Source: Halomarina salina
GTDB lineage: Archaea > Halobacteriota > Halobacteria > Halobacteriales > Haloarculaceae
Assembly (NCBI RefSeq): GCF_023074835.1
Contig: NZ_JALLGW010000002.1
Coordinates: 434,001 to 498,000 of the forward strand
DNA length: 64,000 bases
Reading direction: 5' to 3'
The position numbers and the translations under genes are program-made. The notes beneath the pieces are model-generated. The model was not told the DNA's origin. It searched no databases and saw nothing but the letters and a program-made list of their open reading frames with translations. Positions 5,298-24,821 of this stretch are shown piece after piece; position 1 is the first letter of the stretch; every line of letters starts with the position of its first letter.

Positions 5298-5307
5298 GGC
5301 TGTCCAG

Positions 5308-6120: not shown

Positions 6121-6148
6121 TGCAAGGTGCACGTATCGCTAATGAGGC

Positions 6149-7013: not shown

Positions 7014-7077
7014 ACGAGGTCGCGAGCGCCGTCGCTCACGACGACTGGAGCGAAAACTGAAAGAACGCGACGACGCG

Positions 7078-7596
7078 TCAGTTACGCGATTCGAGCGCGT
7101 CGGCGATGCGTTCGAGTTCGCGGCGGACGTCGTGGACCTCGTCGCGGACCTTCCGGACCTCGCGGACGAGTTCCTCGTTGGCGCGGTCGTTCTCGCCGCG
7201 TTCGCGGGGGTCGGGGCCGCCGCCCATTCCGGGCGGACCGCCGCCCATGCCACCGGGGCCGCCGCCCATGCCGCCACCGCCCATCCCGCCGGGGCCGCCG
7301 CCGCCCATCATACCGCCCATCATCTGGGCGAACGGGTTGCCGCCACCGCCCATCCCACCGGGACCACCCTCCTCGCCGCCGAACGCCTCTTCGAGACGCT
7401 CCTCGGGCGAGCGGTCGTCGGGGCCGCCCTCGCCCTCGCGCTGTTCGGCGCGCTGCTGTCGGATCTCCTCGACGCGTTCGCGGAACGACTTCTCCTCGCC
7501 CGCGTCGTCGCCCGCCTCGTCGTCACCGCTCACGATTGGCTCTTCGTCGGCCGATTCGTCGGACGGCGTCTCCTCCGTCGGGTCGTCGTCACTCAT
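7078..7596 (-). CDS. low-complexity Gly/Met-rich acidic protein (left copy)
   Basis: A 172-residue protein in three parts: an acidic N-terminus (residues 1-70), a Gly-Met-rich tract of GPGGMGGG-type repeats (about residues 75-127), and a charged C-terminal helix with coiled-coil character (NEELVREVRKVRDEVHDVRR region). It has no membrane segment and no recognised domain. The Met/Gly tract could drive self-association or bind soft metals; both are inference. Confidence 0.7.
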   Translation of the reverse strand: MSDDDPTEETPSDESADEEPIVSGDDEAGDDAGEEKSFRERVEEIRQQRAEQREGEGGPDDRSPEERLEEAFGGEEGGPGGMGGGGNPFAQMMGGMMGGGGPGGMGGGGMGGGPGGMGGGPPGMGGGPDPRERGENDRANEELVREVRKVRDEVHDVRRELERIADALESRN

Positions 7597-7669
7597 GGGC
7601 CGCCCTTCTCGGCCACGTCACAAAAGGATGTGTGACTGGCGTCGGTCGCAAAGTGAGTCGTCAGCGTGG

Positions 7670-7972
7670 CTACAGTCGACGGACGACCAGCGAGATGCCG
7701 ACCGCCGCCAGGAGCAGGACGCCGAGGTTGAACGCCGCCTGGTACAGCGGCTGGTAGCGCTCGCTCACCCACACGTCGATGGCGTGGGAGGCGCTGCCGT
7801 AGAAGTTCACCGTCGCCACCAGCGCCAGCAGGACGCAGAGACCGAGCGCGCCATAGAGGAGGTACGTCCGCAACTGGTCGGCGTCGAGCGCGGTCCGGGT
7901 GCGTGCGCTCGGGCCGTAGTCGGCGTTGGGTCGGTCGACGGCGTCCTCGCCGTCGCGCGTCTCGGAGCTCAC
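7670..7972 (-). CDS. two-helix membrane protein (left copy)
   Basis: A 100-residue protein with an acidic N-terminal tail and two transmembrane helices (about residues 36-57 and 79-97). The first helix carries LLYGALGLCVLLALVATV. Its ATG overlaps the stop of the upstream PGF-CTERM surface-protein gene by four bases (ATGA at 7969-7972), so the two are co-translated. Function unknown. Confidence 0.72.
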   Translation of the reverse strand: MSSETRDGEDAVDRPNADYGPSARTRTALDADQLRTYLLYGALGLCVLLALVATVNFYGSASHAIDVWVSERYQPLYQAAFNLGVLLLAAVGISLVVRRL

Positions 7973-8976
7973 GCCGACCGCCTCCGGGCGAGCAGCGCCG
8001 TGCCGAGCACCGCGACCAGCGCTACGACGACGCCGAAGCCGGGACCCTGACCGTCGGATTCGTAGGATTGGGTGCGGGCGGGGCGGTCGTCGGTCGGTTC
8101 GTCGGAGTCGAAGTCGCTCACCTGGAGGCCGGTGTCGGTGGTGGTCTGGTTCATGGGAATCGTCTTCGTGGGGTCGAGTGCTGCGGGGGCGCGGACGGTG
8201 TCGACCACGACGCCGTCGCGCAGCAACACGGCGTCGAGGTAGTAGTTGTACTGCGTCGGGACCGTCAGGTCGAGCGACGCGGTGGCGGTGCGGCCGGGGC
8301 GGACCTCGCTGACGTCGACGGTCGACCGGTCGGCGACGATGCCGGAGTCGACCTGCCGGGCCTTGACCAGCAGTTCGACGTCGCCGACCACGTCGTCGCC
8401 GGTGTTCGTCAGGAGGGCGTCGACGGCGAGCGTCGTCCGGTCGTCGTCGCTGGCGGCGATTTCGAACTCGACGGCGGGCATCGGCCCGTCGAACCGGTGG
8501 AACTGGAGGTCGCTCTCGGCGAACGCGGGCTGGAGCGACCCGACGCCCGAGACCGACCGGCGGGTCTCGACGATTCGGCGCTCGTTCTGGTAGACGATGG
8601 ACTCGACGCGGTAGTCGCCCGAGCGCGGGACGGTGATGTTCGCGGTGACCGCCCGTTCGCGGTCGCCGTCGACCGTGCCGACCGCGACGGTGCGCTCGGT
8701 CTCGACGAGGCCGGACGCGGCGTCGACGGCGCGGACGCGGAGGGTGACGTTGTCGGCCGCGCCGCCGCGGTGTTTCAGTCGGGTCTCGACGCGGAGGGTC
8801 GCCGTCTCGCCGGTGACCGCGCCGGTGCCGATGGCGAGGTCGCTCACGGCGAGCCTGCTGGGTGGTTCGGGGTCCTGCTGGGGGGCCGCGAGGACGCCCG
8901 GGACGGCCACCATCCCGACGGCCGAGACGAGGACCACCAGCGCGACGCCGGCAGCGAGGACCAGATTCCTATCCAT
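7969..8976 (-). CDS. PGF-CTERM-anchored surface protein (left copy)
   Basis: A 335-residue exported protein. An N-terminal signal (residues 1-30) is followed by two beta-rich Ig-like regions (about 40-160 and 165-270), a Thr/Asp-rich stalk and the C-terminal tripartite signal: PGFG, a hydrophobic helix and RRRSA. PGF-CTERM proteins are processed by archaeosortase A and lipid-anchored outside the cell. The two repeated regions suggest a ligand-binding or adhesive role. It is coupled to a downstream two-helix membrane protein. Confidence 0.82.
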   Translation of the reverse strand: MDRNLVLAAGVALVVLVSAVGMVAVPGVLAAPQQDPEPPSRLAVSDLAIGTGAVTGETATLRVETRLKHRGGAADNVTLRVRAVDAASGLVETERTVAVGTVDGDRERAVTANITVPRSGDYRVESIVYQNERRIVETRRSVSGVGSLQPAFAESDLQFHRFDGPMPAVEFEIAASDDDRTTLAVDALLTNTGDDVVGDVELLVKARQVDSGIVADRSTVDVSEVRPGRTATASLDLTVPTQYNYYLDAVLLRDGVVVDTVRAPAALDPTKTIPMNQTTTDTGLQVSDFDSDEPTDDRPARTQSYESDGQGPGFGVVVALVAVLGTALLARRRSA

Positions 8977-9115
8977 GCACCGACACTCGGGAGGTAGATG
9001 ATATGCTTTGTGTTCAACAGGTCACGACGAGGAACCATCCGGACGAGCGGCGCGAGGTCTCGTAGCGACCGACTCGTCCGGAGACCGGTGGCGAGCGTCG
9101 CCCGAATCGGCGGGG

Positions 9116-9120
9116 TTTAT
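9116..9120 (+). promoter_or_regulatory. TATA-like box for 67-residue membrane protein (left copy)
   Basis: The TTTAT core of GGGGTTTATCC lies about 20 bases before the ATG at 9139, consistent with a leaderless transcript. It supports that ATG over the longer in-frame extension that begins at 8998. Confidence 0.45.
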
Positions 9121-9138
9121 CCGGTCGCTCCACGAGCG

Positions 9139-9342
9139 ATGCGTATGGAAGCGTCAGTCGGGTCCGATATGGGCCTCGGCCTCGGACTGCTGTTCGGTGC
9201 GCTCGGCGTCGGCGGCGCGCTCGTGATGCTCGTCGCCGCGTTCGACGAGATGCAGGTGCTCGCGGGGATGGGGTTCGCCGCCGCGATGGTCGCCGGGACC
9301 GTCCTCATCGCCGCGTTGCATCTCGCCGAGCAACCCCGGTGA
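9139..9342 (+). CDS. small two-helix membrane protein (left copy)
   Basis: A 67-residue protein with two Gly/Ala-rich transmembrane helices (about residues 11-33 and 38-60) and almost no soluble part. The ATG at 9139 sits just behind a TATA-like box; the upstream in-frame sequence is Arg-rich and unlike haloarchaeal protein. Small membrane proteins of this type are widespread in haloarchaea, function unknown. Confidence 0.7.
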   Translation: MRMEASVGSDMGLGLGLLFGALGVGGALVMLVAAFDEMQVLAGMGFAAAMVAGTVLIAALHLAEQPR

Positions 9343-9388
9343 CCAGCGACCGCAGGCCGTAACCGTTAATCCGCGCAATCGCCTAGCG

Positions 9389-9622
9389 ATGGCTATGGCA
9401 GAGTTGAGCGAGGAAGACCAGCAGATCCTCGAGTACCTTCGCGACAGCGTCGCGAACGGTAACCAGTACTTCCGCGCCAAACGCATCGCGAAGGGAGTCG
9501 GTCTCACCGCGAAGCAGGTCGGTGCCAGACTGCCCCGACTCGCCGACAGCGCCGACGACGTCGACATCGAGAAGTGGGGTCGCGCCAAGTCCACCACGTG
9601 GCGAGTAACCCCCGGTGCCTGA
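9389..9622 (+). CDS. DUF7123-like small winged-helix-type protein (left copy)
   Basis: A 77-residue protein with helix-turn-helix character: EEDQQILEYLRD, then AKRIAKGVGLTAKQVGARLP, then a WRVTP strand at the end. This is the layout of a small winged helix. It resembles haloarchaeal DUF7123 proteins, predicted DNA-binding. ATG 9389 and ATG 9395 are both possible. An AT-rich CCGTTAATCC element lies about 20 bases upstream. Confidence 0.72.
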   Translation: MAMAELSEEDQQILEYLRDSVANGNQYFRAKRIAKGVGLTAKQVGARLPRLADSADDVDIEKWGRAKSTTWRVTPGA

Positions 9623-9666
9623 CCGGAACCCCACGGTAATTTTCCGCTGCGGTTCGTAGTACCCCC

Positions 9667-10092
9667 ATGACCGTACGCGTCGAACGGACGTTCGACCTCG
9701 ACGCCTCCCCCGAGGAGGTCTGGGCGTTCATCTCCGACCCGCGCAAGCGCGCCGCACCCATCAGCGTCGTCGACGAGTTCGAAGAGACGGGGGAAGGGAC
9801 CGCCGTCTGGCACGTGAAACTCCCCATCCCGCTGCTCAAACGGACCGCGTCCATCGAGACGGAGGAGACCGACGTCCGACCGCCGGAGTACGTCCGGTTC
9901 GTCGGGCGCTCGAAGGTGATGCGCGTCGTCGGCGAACACGAACTCACGCCCCACGGCGACGGCACGCGACTCACGAACCGCTTCACCGTCGACGGGAAGC
10001 TCCCCGGCGTCGAGAAGTACTTCGAGCGCAACCTCGACGGCGAACTCGACAACCTGGAGGACGCGCTCCGCCGCGACCTGGCGACCGCCTGA
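9667..10092 (+). CDS. SRPBCC/CoxG-like ligand-binding protein (left copy)
   Basis: A 141-residue START-like protein. The first strand VERTFDLDASPEEVWAFISD and the C-terminal long helix (YFERNLDGELDNLEDALRRD region) define the SRPBCC helix-grip fold, which binds small hydrophobic ligands. It ends seven bases before the nitrilase start, so the two are probably co-transcribed. The ligand is unknown. Confidence 0.8.
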   Translation: MTVRVERTFDLDASPEEVWAFISDPRKRAAPISVVDEFEETGEGTAVWHVKLPIPLLKRTASIETEETDVRPPEYVRFVGRSKVMRVVGEHELTPHGDGTRLTNRFTVDGKLPGVEKYFERNLDGELDNLEDALRRDLATA

Positions 10093-10098
10093 GTATCC

Positions 10099-10607
10099 AT
10101 GCGACTCGCCCTCGCGCAACTCGACGTCGAACCGACCGACGTGACGGAGAACGTCGACCGCGCGGTGGCCGCCGTCGACCGGGCGAGCGACCGCGGCGCG
10201 GACCTCGTCGTCCTCCCGGAACTGTTCACCGTCGGCTACTTCGCGTTCGACAGCTACGCCCGCAGCGCCGAGTCCCTCGACGGACCGACGCTCACCCGCC
10301 TCGCGGAGGCCGCCCGCGACCACGAGGTGGGCATCGTCGCGGGGAGCATCGTCGAGGACCTCGCGACGACCGACGGCGGCCCCGCCGAGGAGGGCCTCGC
10401 CAACACCTCCGTCTTCCTCGACCGGGCGGGCGACCGCCGCGCCGTCTACCGCAAGCGCCACCTGTTCGGCTACGACTCCGCGGAGTCCGACCTGCTCGTC
10501 GCGGGCGAGTCGCTGCCCACCGTGGACTTCGACGGGTTCACCGTCGCCACGACGACCTGTTACGACCTGCGCTTCCCCGAACTGTACCGCCGCCTCGTCG
10601 ACGACGG
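10099..10607 (+). pseudogene. 3'-truncated carbon-nitrogen hydrolase (nitrilase) gene
   Basis: The first 169 codons of the 265-residue nitrilase at 50017-50814, cut at the right end of the duplication. The catalytic triad (Glu41 in LPELF, Lys119 in YRKRH, Cys154 in TTCYDLRFPE) is retained, but about 95 C-terminal residues of the fold and dimer interface are lost. The frame stays open to 11022 by reading the opposite strand of the adjoining acyltransferase fragment. That would add about 138 unrelated residues and is unlikely to give a working enzyme. Confidence 0.85.
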
Positions 10608-10995
10608 AGCCAGCTGCCACGACTGCATTCGGTCCGATTTCGACACCGGGAGCGATTACAGCGCCTGCACCGACGAACGCCCCGTCGTGGAGAATAATTC
10701 GCTCGAACACATCGTCGCGGAGTTCCATACCGTCTTCACCGAGATCGTGCGTGACCCCCACGATACTGCAGTTTGGACCGACCTGTACTTCGTCACCGAT
10801 CTCGGCGTTTTCGACGAAACAGCCTGCGTTGATGTCAACGCTATCGCCCACGTGGCACTTCTTGAGCGATGTCCGCTCGTAGATGCCACAGTCGTCTCCT
10901 ACCGTGGAGTCATGAACGGTCACGTATTCACGAACCATCGATTCACCGATTTCAGACTCTACGACCCGTGTCGAGTCGTCAACATCACGTGCCAT
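10608..10995 (-). pseudogene. 3'-truncated hexapeptide-repeat acyltransferase gene
   Basis: About 129 residues of a left-handed beta-helix (hexapeptide) transferase, starting at the ATG at 10995. Repeats such as VGDDCGIYERTSLKKCHVGD, IGDEVQVGPNC and IAPGVEIGPNAVVAAGS are clear, as in sugar O- or N-acyltransferases of surface-polysaccharide loci. The family normally continues as GSVVTKDVP; here the sequence passes GSVV and then enters the duplicated DNA, so the 3' end is lost. GC content is visibly lower (roughly 55 percent) than in its neighbours, suggesting origin in a genomic island. Confidence 0.75.
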
Positions 10996-11081
10996 ACACT
11001 TGACGCAAATTCCCTCCGCTAATCAGTACCGGTTACTCACTGCTGATAGCCGAGAACGCTGTTCACCCTCGACGCTGCCGT

Positions 11082-13848: not shown

Positions 13849-15147
13849 TTACGCGGGCGCGCTCGCGTCGACCTCGTCGCCGTCGGGCAACTCGACGGTG
13901 AGGGAGTACTCGCCGGGGCCGAACGTCCCGGTGGACGCGTCGACCATCTCCTGCGAGACGCCCCGGTCGAAGCCAGCGCCGGGCTTCTCGTAGCTCACGA
14001 GGCTCAGCGTGAGTTCACAGCCGTCGTCGACGGCGAACGATATCGTCGCCGTGCCGTCTTCGACCTGGACGTAGCCCGCGTCGAGGCAGGCCGCCGCGTC
14101 GTCGGCGAGCGTCGGTGTCGACCCGCTGCGGGTCGTCCGGTCGTCGACGCCGTGCGCGTACCGGACGAGGCGCTGCTCGTCGCTGTAGAACCCGTCGTCG
14201 GGTCCGACGTGCGATTTCGGTTCGCCGACGACGAAGTCGACCTGGAAGTAGGTCGACTCGCCGTCGTCACCATCGTCGCCGTCCGTACCGTCATCGGGTG
14301 TCTCCGTCGGCTGTTCGGTGGGCTGCTCGGTGGGTTCTTCCGTCGGCTCCTCGGTGGTCGACGGTGGCTCCTCAGTCGTCGCCGGCGGTTCGTCGGTCGT
14401 CGCCGGGGGTTCTTCCGTGGTCGTTGGCGGCTCCTCCGTGGTCGTTGGCGGTTGCTCCGTAGTGGTCGGCGGTTGCTCCGTGGTCGCCGGTGGCTGTTCG
14501 GTCGTCGCTGGCGGTTCTTCCGTGGTGGCCGGCGGTTCGTCGGTCGTCGCCGGTGGCTGTTCGGTCGGTTCGTCGGTGGTCACCGGCGGCTCGTCCGTGG
14601 TCGCTGGTGGCTCCTCCGTGGGCTGGTCCGTCGACGACCCGACGGTGAGCGACGAGTCGCTCACGCTGGTGACGGCGAGACTCGCGCCCGCGGCGTCGCC
14701 CGCGGCGACGTCGAAGAGGTCGATGCCGGTCTGGCCGTCGGCGGTGCCCACGACGGTCACCGTCGCGACGACGACGCTGCTCCCGGTGAGCGGGTCGTTG
14801 CCGTAGATGGCCTCGAACGCGGCCGAGTCACCGTCGGCCGCGACGCGGGCACTCTCCAGTGCCGGCGACCCGCCCAGCGAGACGGCGGTTATCTCGGCGA
14901 CCGAGGGGTTCGTCAGCGCGACGTCGCCCTCGATGGCTCCGACGGTGTCCGCGCCCTCGACGACGACGTCGAAGGTGACGCTCTCGCCGTTCGCTATCGT
15001 CGGGTTCGCGGGCGACGCGGCGACGGTCACTCCGTCCTCCTGAGCGAGGGCGATGGGGGTCATCGCCCCGACGAGGAGCAGGAGTACTCCCAGTATCGCC
15101 AGTGTCTGCGTGCGGTACGTCGGTCGGGTCCTGTGTTTCGGTGTCAT
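13849..15147 (-). CDS. secreted cohesin-like protein with Thr-Glu-Pro linker (protein A)
   Basis: A 432-residue exported protein. A signal peptide (1-35, ending ALAQ) is followed by a cohesin-like beta-sandwich (about 38-170; core VTFDVVVEG, ALTNPSVAEITAVS and ATVTVVG strands) and a long Thr/Glu/Pro linker of TTEEPP-type repeats (about 173-284). An Asp-rich spacer and a C-terminal beta-rich domain (about 298-432) complete it. It has no dockerin and no membrane or PGF-CTERM anchor. By analogy with cellulosome scaffoldins the cohesin would bind dockerins of the neighbouring proteins; the C-terminal domain could bind cell surface or substrate. It is the last of four same-strand genes. Confidence 0.8.
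   Translation of the reverse strand: MTPKHRTRPTYRTQTLAILGVLLLLVGAMTPIALAQEDGVTVAASPANPTIANGESVTFDVVVEGADTVGAIEGDVALTNPSVAEITAVSLGGSPALESARVAADGDSAAFEAIYGNDPLTGSSVVVATVTVVGTADGQTGIDLFDVAAGDAAGASLAVTSVSDSSLTVGSSTDQPTEEPPATTDEPPVTTDEPTEQPPATTDEPPATTEEPPATTEQPPATTEQPPTTTEQPPTTTEEPPTTTEEPPATTDEPPATTEEPPSTTEEPTEEPTEQPTEQPTETPDDGTDGDDGDDGESTYFQVDFVVGEPKSHVGPDDGFYSDEQRLVRYAHGVDDRTTRSGSTPTLADDAAACLDAGYVQVEDGTATISFAVDDGCELTLSLVSYEKPGAGFDRGVSQEMVDASTGTFGPGEYSLTVELPDGDEVDASAPA
14296..14631 (-). repeat. in-frame Thr-Glu-Pro linker repeats
   Basis: A degenerate tandem repeat coding for about 16 units of TTEEPPA/TTDEPPA/TTEQPP type. DNA units are about 18-21 bases and differ mainly at third codon positions. 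It is typical of the glycosylated linkers between modules in extracellular proteins. It is coding sequence, not a CRISPR or minisatellite. Confidence 0.8.
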
Positions 15148-15204
15148 CGGTTGGTGTGTCGTCTATCGCTGTGTGCTGGTCGTCGGCTGTGCTGTGGTGT
15201 GGTC

Positions 15205-16980
15205 TCAGTCACTGGTCTGGGCGAAGAGGTTCTGGACGTCGACGACGTTGAACTGGCCGTCGCCGTTGTAGTCGAACAGGAGCGGGTCGCCGGTGACGAC
15301 GCCGGAGTCGCGGTTGACGAACAGCGCCTGCACGTCGCTGGCGGTCAGTTCGCCGTCACCGTTGACGTCCTCGTAGACGCCGTCGCCGTCGAGGTCCTGT
15401 GGCGGTCCGGCGTAGCTGTCGTCGATGAGCGCGAGAGTGACCGCGACGGTCCCGGTCGCCTCGTCGTCGACGGTGAACACGCCGTAGTCGTACTCGCCTG
15501 GCGCGAGGGAGTCGGGAATCGCGGCGCTGAGCGGGACCGAGTCGGTCACGCCGGCACCGAGGGTGACGGGCGCGGACGCGACGGTCTCGCCGGGCGCGAG
15601 CGTCCCGTCGCCGTTCAGGTCGAAGCGGAGCGAGACGGTCTTGGTCGTCTCCAGGCTCCCGTCGTTCGTGACGTCGGCCGTCACGGTGAGCGACTCGCCG
15701 CGGACGACGCTGTCGGGGCCGTCGAGGTTCGAGACGAGGAACTCCGCCGGGACGACGGACAGCGTCGCGTCGGACGTGCCGGTCACGTCGTAGGTCTCGA
15801 CGCCGTCTTCGGTCCCGAGGACCGCCGAGGAGACGGAGAGCGTCGTCGAGTCGACGCTCGCCCCTTCGACGGTCACCGTCGCCACCGTCACCGCGCCGGT
15901 GTCGGCCGTGTCCATTCCGACGGCGGCGATGGACGCCGAGGAGCCGTCGCCGGCCACGCTCGCGTCCTCGAAGCCGGTCGCCGGCGAGTCGATGCCGACG
16001 ATCTCCGCCGTGGCGGTGTCGCCGATTGCCACGTCCAGGTCGATGGCACCGACGCCGCCGTCGGCGTTCTCGACGACCACGTCGAAGGTGGCCGTGCCGC
16101 CGACGCCGACGGTCTGCTCGGACGGCGAGAGGCTCACGGCCGTCGCCGGCCCGTCGCCGCCACCGCCGGAGGACGCGGCGACGCTCAGTGCGGCCGTCGC
16201 GCTGTCGTCGTCGCTGTACACGCCGTGGGTGTAGCTGCCCGCGCTGGCGCTGCCGGGGACGGTCACGTCGAACGTGACGGCCTGGGACTGCCCGGCGTCG
16301 AGCGTCACCTGCTCGGAGTCGAGCGTCTGCCCGTCGAACTGGTAGACGACGGTCTGGGTCCCGCTCTCGCCGCCGTCGTTCGTGACGGTCGCCGAGACGG
16401 AGATGGACTCGCCCGCGTCGGCGCTTCCCGGTGCCTGCAGGTTCGAGACCTGGAAGTCTGCCGGGTCCACCGCGACCGGTTCGACGGTCAGCGTCGCGCC
16501 GTTCGTGCCGGTCACGTCGTAGGAGTTGCCGGGCAGGTCACTGAGGTCGGCGTCGGTGATGCTGAGGCCGGTCGACCCCTCGGCGACACCCTCGACGGTG
16601 ACGGTCGCTATCGTCGGACTCGCCCCCGCGATGGGGTTGTTGCCGTAGACGGCCTGGAAGCCGGCCGACGACCCGTCGGCGGCGACGTCGGTGTTCACGA
16701 AGCCGGGGCTGCCGGCGACGCTGACGGCCGTGATCTCCGCCACTGACGGATCCGTCAGTTCGAGGTCGACGTCGGACGCCCCGACGTCGCCGTCGGTGGT
16801 CTCGACGACCACGTCGAACGTCGTCGTCTGGCCGACGGTGACGGTCTGGCTGTTCGGTGCGATGCTGACTTCGGTGCTCGTCGCGCCCATGGCGACGCCC
16901 GGGACGCCCGCCGCGGCGACGAGCATCGTCGCGAGTACGAGGGCCGCGACCGCCCTGAGTGTCGATGTATCGTGGTTCAT
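15205..16980 (-). CDS. secreted bi-cohesin protein with CARDB-like domains and dockerin (protein B)
   Basis: A 591-residue exported protein: signal peptide (1-32), cohesin-like domain 1 (about 33-168), CARDB-like adhesion domain (about 170-270), cohesin-like domain 2 (about 275-400), second CARDB-like domain (about 405-515) and C-terminal dockerin (about 525-591). The dockerin has two F-hand Ca loops: DGDGVYEDVNGDGELTASDV and a second starting DYNGDGQFNVVDV. Carrying both cohesins and a dockerin, it could act as an adaptor scaffold joining dockerin proteins to the cohesin of protein A or C. It lies 57 bases upstream of the protein A gene. Confidence 0.8.
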   Translation of the reverse strand: MNHDTSTLRAVAALVLATMLVAAAGVPGVAMGATSTEVSIAPNSQTVTVGQTTTFDVVVETTDGDVGASDVDLELTDPSVAEITAVSVAGSPGFVNTDVAADGSSAGFQAVYGNNPIAGASPTIATVTVEGVAEGSTGLSITDADLSDLPGNSYDVTGTNGATLTVEPVAVDPADFQVSNLQAPGSADAGESISVSATVTNDGGESGTQTVVYQFDGQTLDSEQVTLDAGQSQAVTFDVTVPGSASAGSYTHGVYSDDDSATAALSVAASSGGGGDGPATAVSLSPSEQTVGVGGTATFDVVVENADGGVGAIDLDVAIGDTATAEIVGIDSPATGFEDASVAGDGSSASIAAVGMDTADTGAVTVATVTVEGASVDSTTLSVSSAVLGTEDGVETYDVTGTSDATLSVVPAEFLVSNLDGPDSVVRGESLTVTADVTNDGSLETTKTVSLRFDLNGDGTLAPGETVASAPVTLGAGVTDSVPLSAAIPDSLAPGEYDYGVFTVDDEATGTVAVTLALIDDSYAGPPQDLDGDGVYEDVNGDGELTASDVQALFVNRDSGVVTGDPLLFDYNGDGQFNVVDVQNLFAQTSD

Positions 16981-17105
16981 TCGTCTTCTGTCGTGGTCGT
17001 TCGCGCTGCTGGTCGAGTCGTGTCCGTTCGGCGGCCGAACGGGGTCGATGGGGCGACGTGGCGGGGAGAGGTTGACCTCTGGAGTCCGGCCGCCGGTCGC
17101 GCATC

Positions 17106-17126
17106 GGAGCGGTGATCGGCCGCTCC
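17106..17126 (-). terminator. hairpin after protein C gene
   Basis: GGAGCGG (17106-17112) pairs with CCGCTCC (17120-17126), a perfect 7-bp stem with a 7-base loop. It lies 18 bases beyond the stop of the 1032-residue gene. The same hairpin core with the same TGATCGG loop recurs at 20382-20400 after the 1468-residue gene. It could be a processing site, an mRNA 3'-end stabiliser or a terminator. Confidence 0.5.
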
Positions 17127-17143
17127 GTGGCTGTGGCGCTGGC

Positions 17144-20100
17144 TCACGAGTTTCCTCCCTGGAGTGCGACGAACAGCGCCTGCACGTCCGAGATGGTCAC
17201 CGAGCCGTCGCCGTTGACGTCGAAGGCGTCCTCGTTGGCCTGGACGACGCCGTCCTCGAAGTTCTGGAAGAACGCTTGCACGTCGGAGACGGTGAACGAA
17301 CCGTCGCCGTTGACGTCCTCGTAGACGCCGTCACCGTCGGGGTCGGTCGGCGGCGAGGTGAACTCGCCCACCGGTCCGGGACCGTCGTCGCCCGTGCTGG
17401 ACGGGTCGTACCGGAGGACGACGTAGTTCGAGGCGAATCCGGGGTCGCCGTCGCCGTCCTCGACGGCCGCGACGAAGTAGTTCAGGCCGCCGTCGGCCGA
17501 GGAGTTGGTCAGGTCGACCGCGACGGTCGCCTGGCCGGTCGCGTCGGTCGTGGTCGAGTAGTACTCGACGACGACCGCCTTGTTGGCCTCGTAGTCCTCC
17601 ACGTCGTACGGCGTCGGGACGTCGCTCAGGTCGAGGACGCCCTCGACGCGCACGAGCGTGACCGGCGCGTTCGCCGGACCGCTGACCGTGACGGTCTGGG
17701 CCTGTTCGTTCACCGTCGCGCCGGCGTGGCGCGCGGAGAGTATCGAGTCGTCGAGGGAGACGCCGTCGACGCCGATGGTCGGCGCCGGGGCGACGTCACC
17801 GTCGAGGGACGCCTCGGCCCCGCCGGCGCTCCCGTCGCCGACGAGGTCGGCGGTAGTCGCGCCCGCCTCGTTGGCGACCGTGACGGTCGCCCCCGAGAGC
17901 TCCAGTCCGGAGACCGGACCGGCGGCCTGCGAGCCGAGCGGCGTGCTGCTGATGCTGGTCGGGTCGTTGTCGACCGAGAACGTCATCGTCTCGCCGGGGT
18001 CGAACCCGTCGAGCGTGACGACCAGCGAGTCGTAGCCCGCCGTGTCGTCGACGCCGTTGTGGAAGTCGGCGTACTCGACGTTCGTGACGGTGACCGCACC
18101 GCCGTCGAGGCTGAACTCCTTCCCGACGTTGTCGCCGGCGGTGTTGTACGGGTCGAACACCATGTCCGGCAGCATCGTCGGCGCGAGGTCGAGCGTGAGC
18201 GTCTCGATGGCCGACTCGCCGGTGTTGGTCACCTGGAACGACCCACCCGTGTACGTGGTCGCGTCGACGCCCGAGTCGGGGGTGACGGCCACCGACGCGT
18301 TGGGTGCGACGGGTCCGCCGCCGCTGCCGTCCTCGACGGAGCGTACGACGATGGCGCTGACCTTCGCGTTGTCCGCGCTGGCGCTGAACTCGACGTTCAG
18401 TTCGCCGTCGGTCACCTCGACGGTGTACGTCCGCTCGGTCGCGGAGAGCGGACCGACGTCCGCGTAGATGTCGTAGTCCACCAGTTCGACCGCACCGCCC
18501 TCGACGTTCGCGCTGAACACGCGGTCGCCGATCTGGTCCGTGTCGCCGTCGTTCGGCGAGACGCCCTGGTAGATCTCGGCGAACTGCAGGGTCACCTCGT
18601 AGACGCCGTTCTCGACGGGCACGTCGTAGCTGAACGGGTCGCCGTAGCGCTCGGTGTGGTAGAGCGCGTCGTCGTCCGTGTTCGCGACGTCCGGCGCGCC
18701 GGAGACGCTGTACGTGCTCCCGCCGCCGAAGTTCGTGTCCGCCGCGTACTCCGTGCCGTCGGTGGCCGTGTACTGGTTCCCGCCGGCGTTCACCGCGAAC
18801 ACCACCTCACCGTCGGACGGTCCCGACGGAGCGTCCGAGTCGTACTCCAGAATCACCGTCTGGGAGGTGCGACCGGAGTTCTCGCCCGCGACCGCCGCGA
18901 GGAAGTAGTCGTAGTCGCCCTCCGAGAGGGAGACCGCGACCGTCGCGCTCCCGTCGGAGCCGAGCGCGACCGTCTGCGTGGAGACGCTCGCGGCCATGTT
19001 CGCCTCGTAGTCGTCGACGTCGTAGCCGGCGGCGGGTGCCGGCGTCCCGACGACGTGGAGCAGGGTGACGCTCTCGCCGGCCGGTCCGTCGACGGTGAGC
19101 GTCTGGCTCTGGTCGCCGACCGTCGCGGCCGCGTGGGCCGGGAAGTCGGTCCCGCCCAGCGTGACGCCCTGAACGCCGAGCGTGGGCGCTGCGGCGACGT
19201 CGCCGTTCGCGGTCGCCTGGGCGCCGCCGGCGCTTCCGTCGGTGAACAGGTCGTTCGTGACGCTCCCGTCGGCCGAGGTGACGGTGACGGTGCTGCCCGC
19301 GAGTTCGAGGCCGGAGACCGACCCGGCCCCGCCCGAACTGTCGACGTCCTTGATGCTCGTCGGGTCGATGTCGACCGAGAACGTCAGCGTCTCGCCGGGC
19401 TGGAAGTCGTCGAACGCGATGGTCAGCACGTCGTAGCCGTCCTCGCCGTCCACGCCGTTGTGGGGGGCCGAGAACGTGCCGTCGACGAGACCGGTCGCGC
19501 TCGCGCCGCCGTCGGGGCTGAACCCCTTGGCGACCGCGTCGCCGGCGGTCCCGTCGGGGTCGAACACGACGTCGGGCACGACGCTCTCCGAGAGGTCGAT
19601 GGTGACCGACTCGACGTCGGTCTCGCCGTCGTTGGTGATGGCGAACGAGCCGCCGCCGTAGGTGCTCGCCGCGATGCCCTCGCCGTCGTTGGCGGTGACG
19701 GTCGCGCTGGTGGCATCGTCGCTGCCCTCGACGGTCAGCGTCGCGCCGTTGGTCGCCGTGACGTCGTAGCCCGACCCCGCGTCGTCGAAGACGAGGAACT
19801 CGGCGAGGTCGACGCCGGTCTGCCCGGCGGCGGTCCCCTCGACGGTCACGGTCAGGACCGTGACGCTCGGGCCGTCACCCGCGAGGGAGTTCGACCCGTA
19901 GAACGCCGCGAAGGTGGCCGAGCCACCGTCCGAGGCGACGTCCACGTTCGTGCTCGCCGGACTACCGGCGTAGCTCACGTCGGTTATCTGGGCGACCGAG
20001 GAGTCGGTGAGCGTCACCTCCCCTTCCGCCGCCCCGACGTCGCCGTCGGTGTTCTCGACGACGACCTCGAACGTGGCCGTCTGGCCGACGTCGACCGTCT

Positions 20101-20242
20101 GGCTGGTCGCGAGGACGCTGACCTCGGTGCTGGTCGCCGCGAAGGCGACCCCGGCCGCGCCCGCGGAGACGACGAGCATCGCCGCGAAGACGATGGCCGC
20201 GAGTGGTCTGAGGGCCGTTCCGGCCCCTCTGTTTCTTGTCAT
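17144..20242 (-). CDS. secreted cohesin-malectin-dockerin protein with duplicated modules (protein C)
   Basis: A 1032-residue exported protein: signal peptide (1-35), cohesin-like domain (about 36-165), a roughly 300-residue beta-rich module (about 170-470), a malectin-like carbohydrate-binding domain (about 475-640; YTATDGTEYAADTNFGGGS start, EIYQG core), a second copy of the 300-residue module (about 645-955) and a dockerin (about 960-1032; DGDGVYEDVNGDGSFTVSDV, then a second FDVNGDGSVTISDV loop). The malectin domain suggests a glycan ligand. With a cohesin at one end and a dockerin at the other, the protein could form chains. No catalytic domain is recognised. Confidence 0.8.
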   Translation of the reverse strand: MTRNRGAGTALRPLAAIVFAAMLVVSAGAAGVAFAATSTEVSVLATSQTVDVGQTATFEVVVENTDGDVGAAEGEVTLTDSSVAQITDVSYAGSPASTNVDVASDGGSATFAAFYGSNSLAGDGPSVTVLTVTVEGTAAGQTGVDLAEFLVFDDAGSGYDVTATNGATLTVEGSDDATSATVTANDGEGIAASTYGGGSFAITNDGETDVESVTIDLSESVVPDVVFDPDGTAGDAVAKGFSPDGGASATGLVDGTFSAPHNGVDGEDGYDVLTIAFDDFQPGETLTFSVDIDPTSIKDVDSSGGAGSVSGLELAGSTVTVTSADGSVTNDLFTDGSAGGAQATANGDVAAAPTLGVQGVTLGGTDFPAHAAATVGDQSQTLTVDGPAGESVTLLHVVGTPAPAAGYDVDDYEANMAASVSTQTVALGSDGSATVAVSLSEGDYDYFLAAVAGENSGRTSQTVILEYDSDAPSGPSDGEVVFAVNAGGNQYTATDGTEYAADTNFGGGSTYSVSGAPDVANTDDDALYHTERYGDPFSYDVPVENGVYEVTLQFAEIYQGVSPNDGDTDQIGDRVFSANVEGGAVELVDYDIYADVGPLSATERTYTVEVTDGELNVEFSASADNAKVSAIVVRSVEDGSGGGPVAPNASVAVTPDSGVDATTYTGGSFQVTNTGESAIETLTLDLAPTMLPDMVFDPYNTAGDNVGKEFSLDGGAVTVTNVEYADFHNGVDDTAGYDSLVVTLDGFDPGETMTFSVDNDPTSISSTPLGSQAAGPVSGLELSGATVTVANEAGATTADLVGDGSAGGAEASLDGDVAPAPTIGVDGVSLDDSILSARHAGATVNEQAQTVTVSGPANAPVTLVRVEGVLDLSDVPTPYDVEDYEANKAVVVEYYSTTTDATGQATVAVDLTNSSADGGLNYFVAAVEDGDGDPGFASNYVVLRYDPSSTGDDGPGPVGEFTSPPTDPDGDGVYEDVNGDGSFTVSDVQAFFQNFEDGVVQANEDAFDVNGDGSVTISDVQALFVALQGGNS

Positions 20243-20381
20243 TTTTGTGTTGTGTCTGTGTTGGCTGTCACGCCGACCCGAGTCGGCGAACCGTTCTCCT
20301 GCAGGTGGCCGCCGCGAGCGACGGGTGATGGCGGACCTCTGGAGTCCGTCCGTCGCCGCCGACGACCCGCGAGAACTGCGA

Positions 20382-20400
20382 GAGCGGTGATCGGCCGCTC
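20382..20400 (-). terminator. hairpin after protein D gene
   Basis: GAGCGG (20382-20387) pairs with CCGCTC (20395-20400) around the loop TGATCGG, 14 bases beyond the stop of the large dockerin gene. Loop and stem match the hairpin at 17106-17126. Both are followed further on by a shared ACCTCTGGAGTCCG block, so the two intergenic regions are related. Confidence 0.5.
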
Positions 20401-20414
20401 CCGGTTGCGGTCGC

Positions 20415-23400
20415 TCAGCTACTGGTCGCCTCCTGGAACAGGGCCTGGACGTCGCCGACGTTGACCGAGCCGTCGCCGTTGACGTCGAACGCGTCGACGT
20501 TGTCCTGGACCGTGCTACCCTCGTAGTTCTGGAAGAACGCCTGGACGTCGCCGACGTCGAACGAGCCGTCGCCGTTGACGTCCTCGTAGACGCCGTCGCC
20601 GTCGGTGTCGGTCGGCGGCGAGGTGAACTCGCCCACCGGTCCGGGGCCGTCGTCGCCGACGGCCACTATCTCGATGGCGTTGATCTGCGGGTTCTCGGCG
20701 AGACCGTGGAGCAGCTCCACGTCGACGCTGTCGTCGGTCGGCGTGACGGTGAACGACTCCATGCCGCCGGTGTTGTCGCCGTAGGCGACGATGGGGTCGA
20801 AGTCGGTCAGGACCTGCTGGCCCTCTACCGAGACGTCGAACACCCGGTCGCCGGGGTCGCTCGTCCCGCTGTAGCCGTCGTGGAAGTACAGCCTGGCCTC
20901 GTAGGTCGTCCCGGACTGCGCCGAGAAGCTCCAGAGCATCTCGTCGCCGCTGTCGGGGTCGTACCGTTCGGTCCCGAACACCGCGGTCGGCGTATCCGAG
21001 GACACCGACGCGTCGACACCGCCGACCGCGTACGGGAGGCCGCCGGGTATCGACCCGCCGGCGACGAGGTACGGCGACGGACTGCCGCTGGTGTCCGCAC
21101 TCCAGACCGGCCCGTCGTCGGTCGCGGCCAGTTCGGGACCGCCCACGTTCACGCGGTGGACGACCGTGCCGTCGGCGGGTTCGCCGTCGGCGTCCTCGAC
21201 GGTCACGGTCACCGTGTCGGTGTCCGAGAACTCGCCGTCGGAGACGCTGACCTGGAAGGTGAGCGTCTGGTCGCCGTCGACGTCGGGAGCGGTGAACGAC
21301 ACCGACTCCGAGTCGAAGAAGTCGAGGCCCGCGTCGGGGCCGTCGAGCTGTGACCAGGTGAACCCGAGCGTGTCCGCGTTCGGGTCGCTGGAGCCGGACG
21401 CGTCGAGGGTGACCTGCTGGCCCTCCTCGACGGTGACGTCCGCGCCGGCGTCGGCCACCGGCGGCTGGTTGGCGGGCGGCGTGACGTACTCGACGACGAG
21501 GTCGGTCCACGTCGCGTCGAACGTCGACCCCGCGTTGTAGGACGTCGCGACGACGCCCACCGCGAGACCGCTGCCGTCGGCGCTGTCGAGCCAGGACGAC
21601 GGCACCGTCGTCTCGCCGACGTACGTCTTCTCGCCGCCGGGCGGCGTGTAGTACGCCTTCACCGTCTCGTTGCTCGGGAAGACGGTCAGCGAGAGGTCCG
21701 TGTTGCTGCTCGGCCCCGTGACGCTCCCGTCGGTGACGTGCTGGTCGTACTCGCCGAACGAGCCGTCGACCTCCTTGGCGAACTGGATACCACCGTCGCC
21801 GCCCTCCGCGGAGAGGATGAGCTTCAGGTAGTTGTCCTGGTCGCCGTTCCCGACGTAGATACCGAGCCCCTGGTAGTTCTGGGGGTCGGCCGGGAAGCCG
21901 TTGACCGTCGTCGAGACGGTGAACGGCTGGTCGGGGGCGTCGACACCGCGCTGGAACGCGAACTGCTGGGCGTTCTGGTCGTTGACCGCGTCGCCCGAGG
22001 GGACGTTCTCGACCGTCAGGACCTGCGCCGCGCCGCCGACCGTCATCTGGTCGGGGTCGTAGAGGTCCAGGTAGTCGTCCTGCCCGTTGGTCATCAGGCC
22101 CGTCCAGCCCTGGCCGTTCGGACCGAACAGCTGGGTCTCGGAGAGGTCCATGGTGACCGGCAGGGACGTCGAGGTGCCGTCGTCGGCGTCGAGCGCGAAC
22201 GGGTCGGCCGTGTCGGGCGTGCCGTCGTCGTCGTCGTCCGCGTCGTTGACGTTCGAGGTGCCGTCACCGTCGAAGTCCGCGGGCGTCGAGGCCGCCGAAC
22301 ACGGGTCGGTGCCCGCGTCGAGTTCGTCGGCGTTGTCGTAGCCGTCCTCGTCCTCGTCGAGGGCCACGTCGTCGGCCGCGGTACACTGGTTGCCACCGCC
22401 GCCGCTACCCTCGTAGTCGGTCGGCTCGAACACCGTGATGCCGCCGCGGGCGGTCCAGACGGTCCCCGGGAAGGGGCCGTCGTCGCCCTGCGCGGCGATG
22501 CCGAGCGCGCTGAGGTCGCTGAAGAAGTTGCCGCTCTGTTCGGTGACGCCGGTGCCGTCGGCGGTCAGTTCGACGCGGGTGACGGAGCTGGAGCCCACGA
22601 CGACCAGCAGGTCGCCCTGCATCTGGCCGCCGAAGTTCGAGGCGGTGTACTCCTCGATACCGCCCGTCCAGCCGAACTCGTCGCCGAGGGAGTTGTCCTC
22701 GTTCGCGCCCTGGTAGTCGCACTCGATGGGGTTCACCTTCGAGGCGGGAACGGGGCTGTTCGACTCGGTGATGTCGTAGACGAGGTTCCCCGCCGCGTCG
22801 TAGATGTCCGCGCCGGTCGGGTTGCCCCGGATGGGAGCGGGGTGACCGCCGTAGCTCCCCTCGCTGGCGAGGTGGAGCTGGTCACCGTCCCCGGAGCCGG
22901 GGTCGTTCGGTTCGTTCGTACAGACCCCGCCCGAACCCTCGCCGATGGGCTGGCCGCCCCAGCCACCGTTCGGGCCGTTGTCGATAGTGTAGAGTCGGTC
23001 GTCCTCGGTCAGGACCAGGTCGTACGGGTTCCGGTAGCCCGAGGAGTGGACCTGAACGGGACCGTCCTCGACCCACTTCGCCTGGTTGACGCCGTCGTCG
23101 CCGCCGAACGGCAGGTCGTCGCCGTCGGTGGCGTCGTCGGTCTGGATGGTCGGAATCGCGTACAGGAACTCGACGTCCGGGTAGGCGCTGTCGTAGTCCT
23201 GCAGGTTCTTCGGCTGGTAGTTCTGGTCGATCTGCTGGAGGTCGACCGAGAGCACCGCGGCCGAGAGCGCGTACTCGGACGTGTGGCCGAAGTTGTTGCT
23301 GGGCGCACCCTGGTTCGTGTGGCCGCCCTGCGCGACGAACAGCGTCGTGCCGTCGTCGCTGAGGTCCATCCCGTTCGTGGCGTGGTTCTCCTCGGAGCGG

Positions 23401-24821
23401 GGGAGGCCGAGGACGAGCACCTCGTGGTCGACCCCGTTCAGGCTCCCGTCGCCGTTCCAGTCGAACGTGAGCCGGGAGATGGCCCCCGAGTTCGTGTCCG
23501 TGTCGTCGTCGTCCGTCCCGACGTCGATGGTCGGGTCGGACGAGGAGACGTAGACGACGGGCGTCTCGGCGGTGCCGCCGACCGTCAGGCCGGTGACCTG
23601 CCGCGTGTTCTCGCCGGAGACGTAGTTCCCGTTGTCGTCGTGGTTCGGGATGTCCTTGATGGCGTCGACGCTCTCCTGAGAGACCACGTCGTACGAGTTC
23701 TCGCCGTCGCGGGTCACCTCCAGCGCGTAGACGTCGCCGTCCTGTTGGGCGACGTAGAGGCGACCGTCGGGGCCGAACTCCAGCGCCGTGAGCGACCCCT
23801 GGCCGAAGCCCTGGAGGCCGCTCTTCCCGAAGCCGACCTGCGCCGAACTCGCGCCCTCACCCGAGAGGGCGACGGTCAGCGGCGAGTTGCTCCCGGAGTG
23901 GCTCACTTCGAGCGTCGCGCTCTTGGCCTGTGCGTCGGCCGGAATGAACGTCACCGGGATGGTCGCGGACTCGCCGGGGGCCAGCGACCCCTGCGAGGGA
24001 CCGCCGGCCGCGAACTCGTCGGCGTCGGGTCCCGTGACCGAGACGCCCGAGACGTCGATGCTCGGGTCGCCGCTGCCACCGAGGTTGGTGACGGTCACGG
24101 TCTTCGCCTCGCTGTCGCCGGTGAGCACCGACCCGAAGTCGACGGCCGAGGGGCCGCCGAGCGTGTCGGGCTCCGGCTCGGCCGGGACGATCTCGATGGC
24201 CGAGACCTTCGCGTTGTCCGTGACGGTCGTGAGTCCGACGGCTATCGTCCCGTCGGTCGGCGTCACGGTGAACGACTTCATCACGGCGGTCTCCGCACCG
24301 ATGTCGGCGTAGATGTCGTAGCCGTCGAGGACCGTCTCGCCCTGGACGCTCACGTCGAAGACGCGGTCGCCGACCTGACCGTCGCCGCCGTCGTCGTTGT
24401 CGGCGTGGCCGTCGACGTGGTATATCTCGGCGAAGTAGAGGCGCACCTCGTACGGCGTCCCGCTCTGGATGCCGTCGTCGAACGTCCACTGCTGGTCGCC
24501 GTATATCTCGCTGGTGAACAGGTCGGTCGGTGTCCCCGCCGGAACGGAGCTACCGAGAGAGACCGACGCGCTCGCCGAGTAGGTCGTCCCCCCGCTGAGA
24601 CTCACCCCTGTCGTACTTCCCGGGGGTGTCCAGTCGGTGCCGCCGTCGGTGGCGGCGACGGTCCCGGACCCGGCGTTCACTCGATAGAGCGCCGGCGTCT
24701 CCTCCTGAGCGAACACGCCCGCGACGCCGAACGCGAGTCCGGCCGTCGCGGTGGAGAGCACCATGAGGAACGTGAAAGTTACTGCAATCGTCCGTCGTCG
24801 CACGTCGTCAGGTGGTTGCAT
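20415..24821 (-). CDS. giant secreted malectin/sugar-dehydrogenase-propeller/PKD protein with dockerin (protein D)
   Basis: A 1468-residue exported protein. After the signal (about 1-40) come a malectin-like domain (41-215), a choice-of-anchor-D/ASPM-like domain (216-323), a glucose/sorbosone-dehydrogenase-type beta-propeller (about 330-805; SSGYRNPYDLVLTEDDRLYT), Asp-rich thrombospondin-3-like Ca repeats (815-880), a concanavalin-like domain (885-1095), PKD (1100-1200), a second malectin (1205-1385) and a dockerin (1395-1468). The propeller family includes PQQ-dependent sugar oxidoreductases, so it may oxidise sugars outside the cell while docked to a scaffold. The ATG at 24821 is preferred to the TTG at 24866 because it directly precedes the signal peptide. 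First gene of the four-gene run. Confidence 0.82.
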   Translation of the reverse strand: MQPPDDVRRRTIAVTFTFLMVLSTATAGLAFGVAGVFAQEETPALYRVNAGSGTVAATDGGTDWTPPGSTTGVSLSGGTTYSASASVSLGSSVPAGTPTDLFTSEIYGDQQWTFDDGIQSGTPYEVRLYFAEIYHVDGHADNDDGGDGQVGDRVFDVSVQGETVLDGYDIYADIGAETAVMKSFTVTPTDGTIAVGLTTVTDNAKVSAIEIVPAEPEPDTLGGPSAVDFGSVLTGDSEAKTVTVTNLGGSGDPSIDVSGVSVTGPDADEFAAGGPSQGSLAPGESATIPVTFIPADAQAKSATLEVSHSGSNSPLTVALSGEGASSAQVGFGKSGLQGFGQGSLTALEFGPDGRLYVAQQDGDVYALEVTRDGENSYDVVSQESVDAIKDIPNHDDNGNYVSGENTRQVTGLTVGGTAETPVVYVSSSDPTIDVGTDDDDTDTNSGAISRLTFDWNGDGSLNGVDHEVLVLGLPRSEENHATNGMDLSDDGTTLFVAQGGHTNQGAPSNNFGHTSEYALSAAVLSVDLQQIDQNYQPKNLQDYDSAYPDVEFLYAIPTIQTDDATDGDDLPFGGDDGVNQAKWVEDGPVQVHSSGYRNPYDLVLTEDDRLYTIDNGPNGGWGGQPIGEGSGGVCTNEPNDPGSGDGDQLHLASEGSYGGHPAPIRGNPTGADIYDAAGNLVYDITESNSPVPASKVNPIECDYQGANEDNSLGDEFGWTGGIEEYTASNFGGQMQGDLLVVVGSSSVTRVELTADGTGVTEQSGNFFSDLSALGIAAQGDDGPFPGTVWTARGGITVFEPTDYEGSGGGGNQCTAADDVALDEDEDGYDNADELDAGTDPCSAASTPADFDGDGTSNVNDADDDDDGTPDTADPFALDADDGTSTSLPVTMDLSETQLFGPNGQGWTGLMTNGQDDYLDLYDPDQMTVGGAAQVLTVENVPSGDAVNDQNAQQFAFQRGVDAPDQPFTVSTTVNGFPADPQNYQGLGIYVGNGDQDNYLKLILSAEGGDGGIQFAKEVDGSFGEYDQHVTDGSVTGPSSNTDLSLTVFPSNETVKAYYTPPGGEKTYVGETTVPSSWLDSADGSGLAVGVVATSYNAGSTFDATWTDLVVEYVTPPANQPPVADAGADVTVEEGQQVTLDASGSSDPNADTLGFTWSQLDGPDAGLDFFDSESVSFTAPDVDGDQTLTFQVSVSDGEFSDTDTVTVTVEDADGEPADGTVVHRVNVGGPELAATDDGPVWSADTSGSPSPYLVAGGSIPGGLPYAVGGVDASVSSDTPTAVFGTERYDPDSGDEMLWSFSAQSGTTYEARLYFHDGYSGTSDPGDRVFDVSVEGQQVLTDFDPIVAYGDNTGGMESFTVTPTDDSVDVELLHGLAENPQINAIEIVAVGDDGPGPVGEFTSPPTDTDGDGVYEDVNGDGSFDVGDVQAFFQNYEGSTVQDNVDAFDVNGDGSVNVGDVQALFQEATSS

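What the first reader, a model, noticed from the sequence alone, without database searches (positions are those of the whole stretch)
13849..24821. Four-gene haloarchaeal cohesin-dockerin locus
Four adjacent secreted proteins carry, in order of transcription: D (malectin, propeller, PKD, malectin, dockerin), C (cohesin, malectin, dockerin), B (two cohesins, two CARDB-like, dockerin) and A (cohesin, long Thr-Glu-Pro linker, novel C-terminal domain). The dockerins show paired DxNxDGxxxxxDV calcium loops. This combination allows enzyme D to dock on C, B or A, and B and C to link into chains, a cellulosome-like extracellular assembly in a salt-loving archaeon. Cohesin and dockerin modules are known singly in archaea; a compact locus built around a sugar-oxidoreductase propeller and malectin domains would be new to me.
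Basis: partly seen in the sequence, partly recalled or inferred. Interest (0 to 1): 0.78.

Follow-up and report, generated by a model that had tools for sequence, protein, structure and literature searches.

The report
Haloarchaeal cohesin-dockerin surface-assembly gene cassette
Four neighbouring genes of a salt-loving archaeon encode secreted proteins that carry matching 'plug' (dockerin) and 'socket' (cohesin) modules, part of a widespread and largely overlooked haloarchaeal kit that probably clips a sugar-dehydrogenase-like protein and its companions together outside the cell.

Summary
D, C and B end in dockerins; A, B (twice) and C carry cohesins that Pfam PF00963 misses completely. An AlphaFold2 model of A's module (pLDDT about 95) matches cohesins, best the Archaeoglobus fulgidus one (Foldseek E 4e-8; Z up to 16). 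The locus is one of many. In 194 haloarchaeal genomes this cohesin type co-occurs with dockerins in 75 of 77 carriers, against 13 of 117 non-carriers. 13 of 20 haloarchaeal loci found by dockerin alone have such a cohesin within 10 kb. The strongest evidence that D docks on C: in 11 relatives D and C are parts of ONE chain, and D's dockerin and C's cohesin sit exactly at the seam. D's propeller is PQQ-sugar-dehydrogenase-like (low-confidence model, activity unproven). A is probably the surface-proximal end: cassette relatives have transmembrane/PGF-CTERM tails where A has a haloarchaeal C-terminal domain of unknown fold. It works like a small scaffoldin system but is not a cellulosome: no cellulase or typical CBM in the locus. 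Binding was not tested. New variant of a known kind.

The parts
20415..24821 (-). Gene D (1468 aa): malectin, Ig-like, sGDH-like propeller, TSP3-like, PKD, malectin, dockerin
24195..24689 (-). D malectin 1 (residues 45-209)
   Evidence: PF11721
23859..24173 (-). D Ig-like choice-of-anchor D / ASH domain (217-321)
   Evidence: NF012200 54.1 bits (cut-off 45), PF22544
22272..23825 (-). D propeller region used in searches (333-850, with TSP3-like Ca repeats at its end)
   Evidence: homologues in 12 other sampled genomes; AF2 model matches sGDH/AA12
21198..21449 (-). D PKD (1125-1208)
   Evidence: PF22352
20658..21152 (-). D malectin 2 (about 1224-1388)
   Evidence: PF11721 second stretch and PF12819
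20424..20639 (-). D dockerin (about 1395-1466)
   Evidence: PF00404 E 2.5e-7; sits at the seam of single-chain relatives
17144..20242 (-). Gene C (1032 aa): cohesin, unknown repeat, malectin, unknown repeat, dockerin
19727..20134 (-). C cohesin (about 37-172)
   Evidence: family profile; C's homology to single-chain relatives mostly starts just after it
18818..19714 (-). C repeat domain copy 1 (about 177-475), no Pfam family
   Evidence: homologous to the C-terminal half of propeller proteins in relatives
18350..18805 (-). C malectin (480-631)
   Evidence: PF11721 E 7e-30
17402..18307 (-). C repeat domain copy 2 (about 646-947)
17153..17380 (-). C dockerin (about 955-1030)
   Evidence: PF00404 E 7.9e-8; 77% identical to D's dockerin
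15205..16980 (-). Gene B (591 aa): cohesin, CARDB, cohesin, CARDB, dockerin
16480..16884 (-). B cohesin 1
16201..16461 (-). B CARDB 1
   Evidence: PF07705
15745..16155 (-). B cohesin 2
15436..15744 (-). B CARDB 2 (approximate)
   Evidence: PF07705 second stretch
15208..15426 (-). B dockerin, divergent from those of C and D
   Evidence: 19.0 bits, 23.5 bits; 51% identical to C's
13849..15147 (-). Gene A (432 aa): cohesin, Thr/Glu/Pro linker, C-terminal YQVDF domain; probable surface-proximal end
14638..15036 (-). A cohesin
   Evidence: AF2 pLDDT about 95; PDB matches are cohesins
14263..14637 (-). A disordered linker
   Evidence: pLDDT mostly below 55
13879..14262 (-). A C-terminal 'YQVDF' domain
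   Evidence: family in 18 of 194 haloarchaeal genomes, usually C-terminal; no Pfam or clear PDB sequence match

Best explanation
The locus encodes a secreted, self-assembling cohesin-dockerin complex. D (sGDH-like propeller with two malectin domains) plugs its dockerin into a cohesin, most likely C's. C and B are adaptors: each has cohesins plus its own dockerin, so they pass the load on. A is the terminal socket, with one cohesin on a long Thr-rich linker and a C-terminal domain in the place where cassette relatives carry a membrane or archaeosortase tail; it probably holds the assembly at the cell surface. Shown: cohesin and dockerin identity, co-occurrence, synteny, and that the D/C junction stands where relatives have a covalent link. 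Inferred: secretion, the order D-C-B-A, surface attachment by A, and sugar binding or oxidation by D. Not tested: binding, Ca dependence, catalysis.
For: (1) Fold: AF2 model of A, cohesin part pLDDT about 95; 37 of the best 38 Foldseek hits are cohesins, best 2xdh from the archaeon Archaeoglobus fulgidus (E 4.3e-8); VIA Z 16.1, rmsd 1.9 over 129 residues to 1g1k. (2) Sequence: of 177,635 PDB sequences the seven best matches to the 49-member profile are cohesins. (3) Co-occurrence: 75 of 77 genomes with this cohesin have A3-type dockerins, against 13 of 117 without; Fisher p 3e-37, not corrected for relatedness. From the genus codes printed, all 32 cohesin-bearing genera also have the dockerin, 5 have dockerin only and 28 neither. 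(4) Linkage: of 20 haloarchaeal loci found by dockerin alone, 13 have such a cohesin within 10 kb. (5) Split versus fused: in 11 relatives one 2,000-2,700-aa chain aligns to D up to about residue 1390 (or 1156-1242 where malectin 2 is missing) and then to C, mostly from about residue 172-189. D's dockerin starts at about 1392 and C's cohesin ends at about 174. The same split is found in G081, in another family. (6) Synteny: propeller protein, coh-doc protein, terminal cohesin protein, in 10 of 12 other sampled genomes with the propeller, plus H. rubra (L105) and Halorubrum salsamenti (L106, with dockerin and cohesin on separate genes). (7) In cassettes where A's domain is absent, the terminal cohesin protein often ends in a PGF-CTERM-like or transmembrane tail.
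Against: No binding data; cohesin-dockerin specificity cannot be read from sequence. Single-chain relatives mostly lack a canonical dockerin on the propeller protein, so how it joins its adjacent coh-doc proteins is unexplained (they carry an internal two-helix module instead). A itself has no membrane or PGF-CTERM tail, and the fold and role of its C-terminal domain are unknown. 7 of the 20 dockerin loci show no nearby cohesin, two of them on very short or cut stretches. Trees that split adaptor from terminal modules are poorly resolved.
Confidence: 0.75

Rival explanations
1. The sandwich modules have a cohesin-like fold but no longer bind dockerins; the dockerins serve as Ca-stabilised substrate-binding or spacer modules, as the haloarchaeal literature has read them.
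For: Dockerins of haloarchaeal enzymes are described as substrate-binding (PMC10963439, PMC13260240). PF00963-type haloarchaeal cohesins show no clear association with A3-type dockerins (p 0.06), so some cohesin folds in this class may have other jobs.
Against: Near-complete co-occurrence and adjacency of this cohesin type with dockerins, and placement of dockerin and cohesin exactly at the seam where relatives have one chain, fit partners, not independent modules. Archaeal cohesin-dockerin binding has been verified elsewhere (statement in PMC9012536 citing earlier work).
Confidence: 0.13
2. The locus builds a structural matrix or filament (B and C polymerise head to tail through their own cohesins and dockerins); the propeller is a non-catalytic carbohydrate-binding head, so the product is an adhesin or biofilm fibre rather than an enzyme display.
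For: B, C and many relatives carry both modules on one chain; malectin, CARDB and PKD are binding or spacer domains. The same propeller superfamily includes non-enzymatic HHIP, which also matches the model.
Against: In the window C's and D's dockerins are near twins (77%) while B's differs, and A's cohesin differs from those of B1 and C, which suits tiers better than one repeating link. Other haloarchaeal dockerins sit on GH10, GH5, GH43 and, with a cohesin, PhoX. An invariant His and an invariant Arg-Asn pair fit the dehydrogenase motif in the propeller alignment.
Confidence: 0.2
3. The compact arrangement is a by-product of assembly error or chance shuffling of common surface modules.
For: The window lies in an exact 39,918-bp tandem duplication that could be an assembly artefact.
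Against: The duplication junction is outside the locus; the cassette recurs in many other genomes, including the same D/C split in G081.
Confidence: 0.02

Closest known systems
Bacterial cellulosome (type I/II cohesin-dockerin scaffoldin systems, e.g. Clostridium thermocellum)
   Same: Cohesin fold (Z 14-16 to type I cohesins), paired-loop dockerins, adaptor proteins with both modules, terminal cohesin protein with a long linker.
   Different: No cellulase or typical cellulose-binding module in the locus; effector is a sugar-dehydrogenase-like propeller with malectins; no SLH or sortase anchor; adaptors carry one or two cohesins.
Archaeoglobus fulgidus non-cellulosomal cohesin (PDB 2xdh) and its dockerin
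   Same: Best Foldseek match of A's cohesin; archaeal, non-cellulosomal.
   Different: Here four cohesins and three dockerins in one multi-gene cassette with adaptors, with relatives across haloarchaeal genera.
ANME scaffoldin-like proteins (PMC9012536)
   Same: Archaeal proteins with several cohesins plus a dockerin.
   Different: Other lineages and cargo (e.g. ABC-transporter binding proteins); no propeller cassette described there.
PQQ-dependent sugar dehydrogenases (sGDH, aldose sugar dehydrogenase, AA12)
   Same: Best structural matches of D's propeller (1qbi, 3a9g, 2ism, 6i1t).
   Different: Sequence match below Pfam and NCBIfam cut-offs; model confidence low (pLDDT 62.5); activity unknown.

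Membership tests
Cohesin | Pfam PF00963 match above its cut-off | tested here: not met
   No match in the genome at E<=10; 1 of 49 family members at E 0.045. The Pfam model misses this branch; the fold and profile tests are met.
Cohesin | Nine-stranded cohesin jelly-roll sandwich | tested here: met
   AF2 pLDDT about 95; 37 of the best 38 Foldseek hits are cohesins; VIA Z 16.1
Cohesin | Profile similarity to solved cohesins | tested here: met
   Seven best of 177,635 PDB sequences are cohesins, but E values only 0.01-0.4
Cohesin | Binds a dockerin | not testable with these tools
   Indirect support only:
Dockerin type I | PF00404 match above cut-off | tested here: met
   D 31.2, C 32.8 bits; B 23.5 bits in the genome search but 19.0; cut-off 22.9
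Dockerin type I | Two Ca-binding F-hand loops | tested here: met
   Paired DxNxDGxxxxxD loops in D, C and B
Cellulosome | Non-catalytic scaffoldin with several cohesins | tested here: met
   B has two cohesins; the terminal protein of L105 has three
Cellulosome | Dockerin-bearing polysaccharide-degrading enzymes | tested here: not met
   None in the locus; one GH10-dockerin protein elsewhere in the genome
Cellulosome | Cell-surface anchor on the terminal scaffoldin | tested here: inconclusive
   A has no membrane or PGF-CTERM tail; several relatives do
PQQ sugar dehydrogenase (GSDH, PF07995) | Pfam or NCBIfam match above cut-off | tested here: not met
   No GSDH match for D; paralogue 16.5 bits against 25; TIGR03606 far below cut-off
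PQQ sugar dehydrogenase (GSDH, PF07995) | Six-bladed sGDH-type propeller fold | tested here: inconclusive
   Best ten VIA rows are sugar dehydrogenases (Z 18.3-20) but other propellers follow at 17-18, and the model is low confidence
PQQ sugar dehydrogenase (GSDH, PF07995) | PQQ/Ca binding and sugar oxidation | not testable with these tools
   Invariant G-x-R-N motif aligns with 2ism; no assay

The most novel reading that the evidence does not exclude
Haloarchaea possess a general, Pfam-invisible cohesin-dockerin display system used to assemble different secreted enzymes (sugar-dehydrogenase-like propellers, PhoX phosphatases, glycoside hydrolases), including genuine cellulosomes in cellulose-degrading species. 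In this locus a joint that is covalent in one giant protein of relatives is made by a cohesin-dockerin pair instead.
Probability: 0.4. Interest if true: 0.85.

Novelty: new variant of a known kind. Interest (0 to 1): 0.66.

Why it matters
Dockerins on haloarchaeal enzymes have been read as substrate-binding modules (PMC10963439, PMC13260240) and a comparative study of cellulose metabolism in haloarchaea mentions neither module (PMC10267330). If these cohesins are their partners, a large group of archaea builds modular surface complexes at very high salt, where the Ca-dependent, partly hydrophobic interface known from bacteria must work under unusual conditions. That is directly testable and useful for salt-stable protein linking. 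The split/fused comparison gives a ready-made pair (D dockerin with C cohesin) to test first.

Tried and rejected
Pfam/NCBIfam and single-sequence PDB search for the cohesins: nothing useful, so profiles and structure were used. PF00963 cohesins as proxy for dockerin partners: no clear association with A3-type dockerins, although G043 shows a separate PF00963-type array with its own Pfam dockerins. Trees to show two specificity tiers: labels cluster more than shuffles (12 versus 28, 16 versus 26 changes) but few supported branches; kept only as a hint. Internal two-helix 'WW' module as a degenerate dockerin: hhalign gave no support (probability 0.6%). A's C-terminal domain: no Pfam family or clear PDB sequence match; its fold was not searched alone because the two structure jobs went to A and the propeller; in the search with all of A the cohesin filled the list. 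Peer et al. 2009, the survey of archaeal cohesins and dockerins, is not in the held library, so priority for single haloarchaeal modules could not be checked.
Full report
WHAT IS THERE. Four co-directional genes on the minus strand (transcribed D, C, B, A) encode proteins that start with Sec-type signal peptides by eye. Pfam confirms malectins, PKD, CARDB and dockerins, and adds an Ig-like (choice-of-anchor D) domain in D; D also has a TSP3-like Ca-repeat region and a domain of about 240 aa without a Pfam hit. C has two roughly 300-aa repeats with no Pfam family.

ARE THE SANDWICHES COHESINS? A profile of the four modules finds hits in 77 of 194 haloarchaeal genomes, and some of these places are also hit by PF00963 (G046:C1:2318502-2318891; G083:C3:242884-243276). 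A 49-member profile ranks cohesins as the seven best of 177,635 PDB sequences, with modest E values. The AlphaFold2 model of A (cohesin pLDDT about 95, linker disordered, most of the C-terminal domain about 85-98) settles the fold: 37 of the first 38 Foldseek hits are cohesins, best 2xdh from Archaeoglobus fulgidus, and VIA gives Z 16.1 over 129 residues. Only A's module was modelled; B1, B2 and C follow by 42-61% sequence identity.

IS THE PAIRING MORE THAN COINCIDENCE? (a) Genome level: 75 of 77 genomes with this cohesin type have an A3-type dockerin, versus 13 of 117 without (Fisher p 3e-37, uncorrected for relatedness). By the genus codes printed genera have both, 5 dockerin only, none cohesin only, 28 neither. 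PF00963-type cohesins show no clear association with this dockerin type (p 0.06). (b) Locus level: a scan for dockerins alone returned 20 haloarchaeal loci; 13 have an A1-type cohesin within 10 kb, where roughly 1 in 200 would be expected from the cohesin density (my estimate). Halomicroarcula rubra (L105) has four genes in the same logic: dockerin protein, coh-coh-doc, coh-coh-doc, coh x3 with the same C-terminal domain as A. The window's own genome has a paralogous cassette on C1 (L085: propeller-dockerin, coh-coh-doc, coh-linker-domain).

THE SEAM. The propeller of D has homologues in 12 other sampled genomes; in 10 of them it lies beside a coh-doc gene and a terminal cohesin gene. In 11 relatives the propeller protein is a single 2,000-2,700-aa chain whose first part aligns to D (50-75% identity) and whose second part aligns to C (about 43-57%). 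D's homology stops at about residue 1390 (1156-1242 where the second malectin is absent) and C's mostly starts at about 172-189. D's dockerin begins at about 1392; C's cohesin ends at about 174. So dockerin and cohesin occupy exactly the joint that is covalent in relatives. G081, in another family, shows the same split (D-like with dockerin, C-like with N-terminal cohesin). In the single chains the joint holds a two-helix module rich in NWWQTG/VPNTGG motifs, which G081's C-like protein keeps after its cohesin. The direction of the change is not known. This is the best available evidence that D binds C.

HOW IT PROBABLY WORKS. D docks on C; C, whose dockerin is nearly D's twin (77%), and possibly D, dock on B; B, whose dockerin is divergent, docks on A. 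Tiers are suggested by these identities and by label clustering on trees, but the trees are weakly resolved. A carries a disordered Thr-rich linker and a C-terminal domain shared with many secreted haloarchaeal proteins, sometimes followed by a transmembrane helix; cassette relatives without it often have PGF-CTERM-like or transmembrane tails. I infer that A holds the assembly at the surface. D's propeller matches PQQ sugar dehydrogenases best (Foldseek first eight hits; VIA Z 18-20 against 17-18 for other propellers) but from a model with pLDDT 62.5, and sequence scores are below family cut-offs. Sugar oxidation is therefore plausible, not shown.

CONTEXT. The same genome has a GH10 xylanase-like protein with a dockerin on C3, and a YCF48-like propeller with a dockerin beside a cohesin-YQVDF protein. 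In many relatives a protein of about 895 aa with cohesin and dockerin (PhoX-like in the one scanned) sits next to a second cohesin gene. G002, whose contig length 2,723,120 equals that of Halococcoides cellulosivorans HArcel1 in PMC10267330, has 56 PF00404 hits and 16 cohesin-like hits, with GH5, GH43 and GH10 dockerin proteins in one cluster of about 14 kb. No held paper found here describes haloarchaeal cohesin-dockerin assemblies; Peer et al. 2009 could not be read.

VERDICT. Real, correctly described, and part of a wider haloarchaeal system whose cohesins current annotation misses. It works like a scaffoldin system; it is not a cellulosome by content. Binding and catalysis remain to be tested.

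Noticed in passing
window 1-10607 and 39919-50525; junction 10600-10607: Exact tandem duplication of 39,918 bp (100% identity over the 10.6 kb inside the window; the first copy starts at C2:404682) with an 8-bp overlap GACGACGG at the junction, which truncates a nitrilase-like ORF (10099-11022). The cassette is therefore present twice in the assembly. Real duplication or assembly artefact not decided.
   Followed up: partly
L195, L197 (G002, contig 2,723,120 bp): Probable Halococcoides cellulosivorans: 56 dockerin hits, 16 cohesin-like hits, clustered GH5/GH43/GH10 dockerin proteins: candidate haloarchaeal cellulosome.
   Followed up: partly
L198 (G104:C23:1-20000): Protein with five tandem cohesins running off the contig end, surrounded by dockerin-bearing GH5/GH9 and other genes; at least 30 dockerin hits in the genome.
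   Followed up: partly
G043:C1:470-492 kb (L201, L202): About 22-kb array with some 14 PF00963 cohesins and six Pfam dockerins, several on the same reading frames; not matched by the window's cohesin or dockerin profiles: a second haloarchaeal cohesin-dockerin type.
   Followed up: no
L207 (G055:C1:1325001-1345000) and relatives: Widespread two-gene pair: protein of about 895 aa with cohesin and dockerin (PhoX-like in L207) next to a cohesin protein of about 270 aa.
   Followed up: partly
L209 residues 1212-1273 of the propeller protein and equivalents: Two-helix module (NWWQTG...VPNTGGQTI...IQQIVNLWQTG) at the D/C joint of single-chain relatives; looks like a Ca-less dockerin by eye, but hhalign gave no support.
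   Followed up: partly
window 13879-14262 and loci L149-L178: YQVDF domain: C-terminal module of many secreted haloarchaeal proteins (22 listed copies in G121, 10 in this assembly), some followed by a transmembrane helix; role and fold unknown.
   Followed up: partly
window 62169-62819 and 63276-63932: Two direct repeats of about 650 bp with 74% identity.
   Followed up: no
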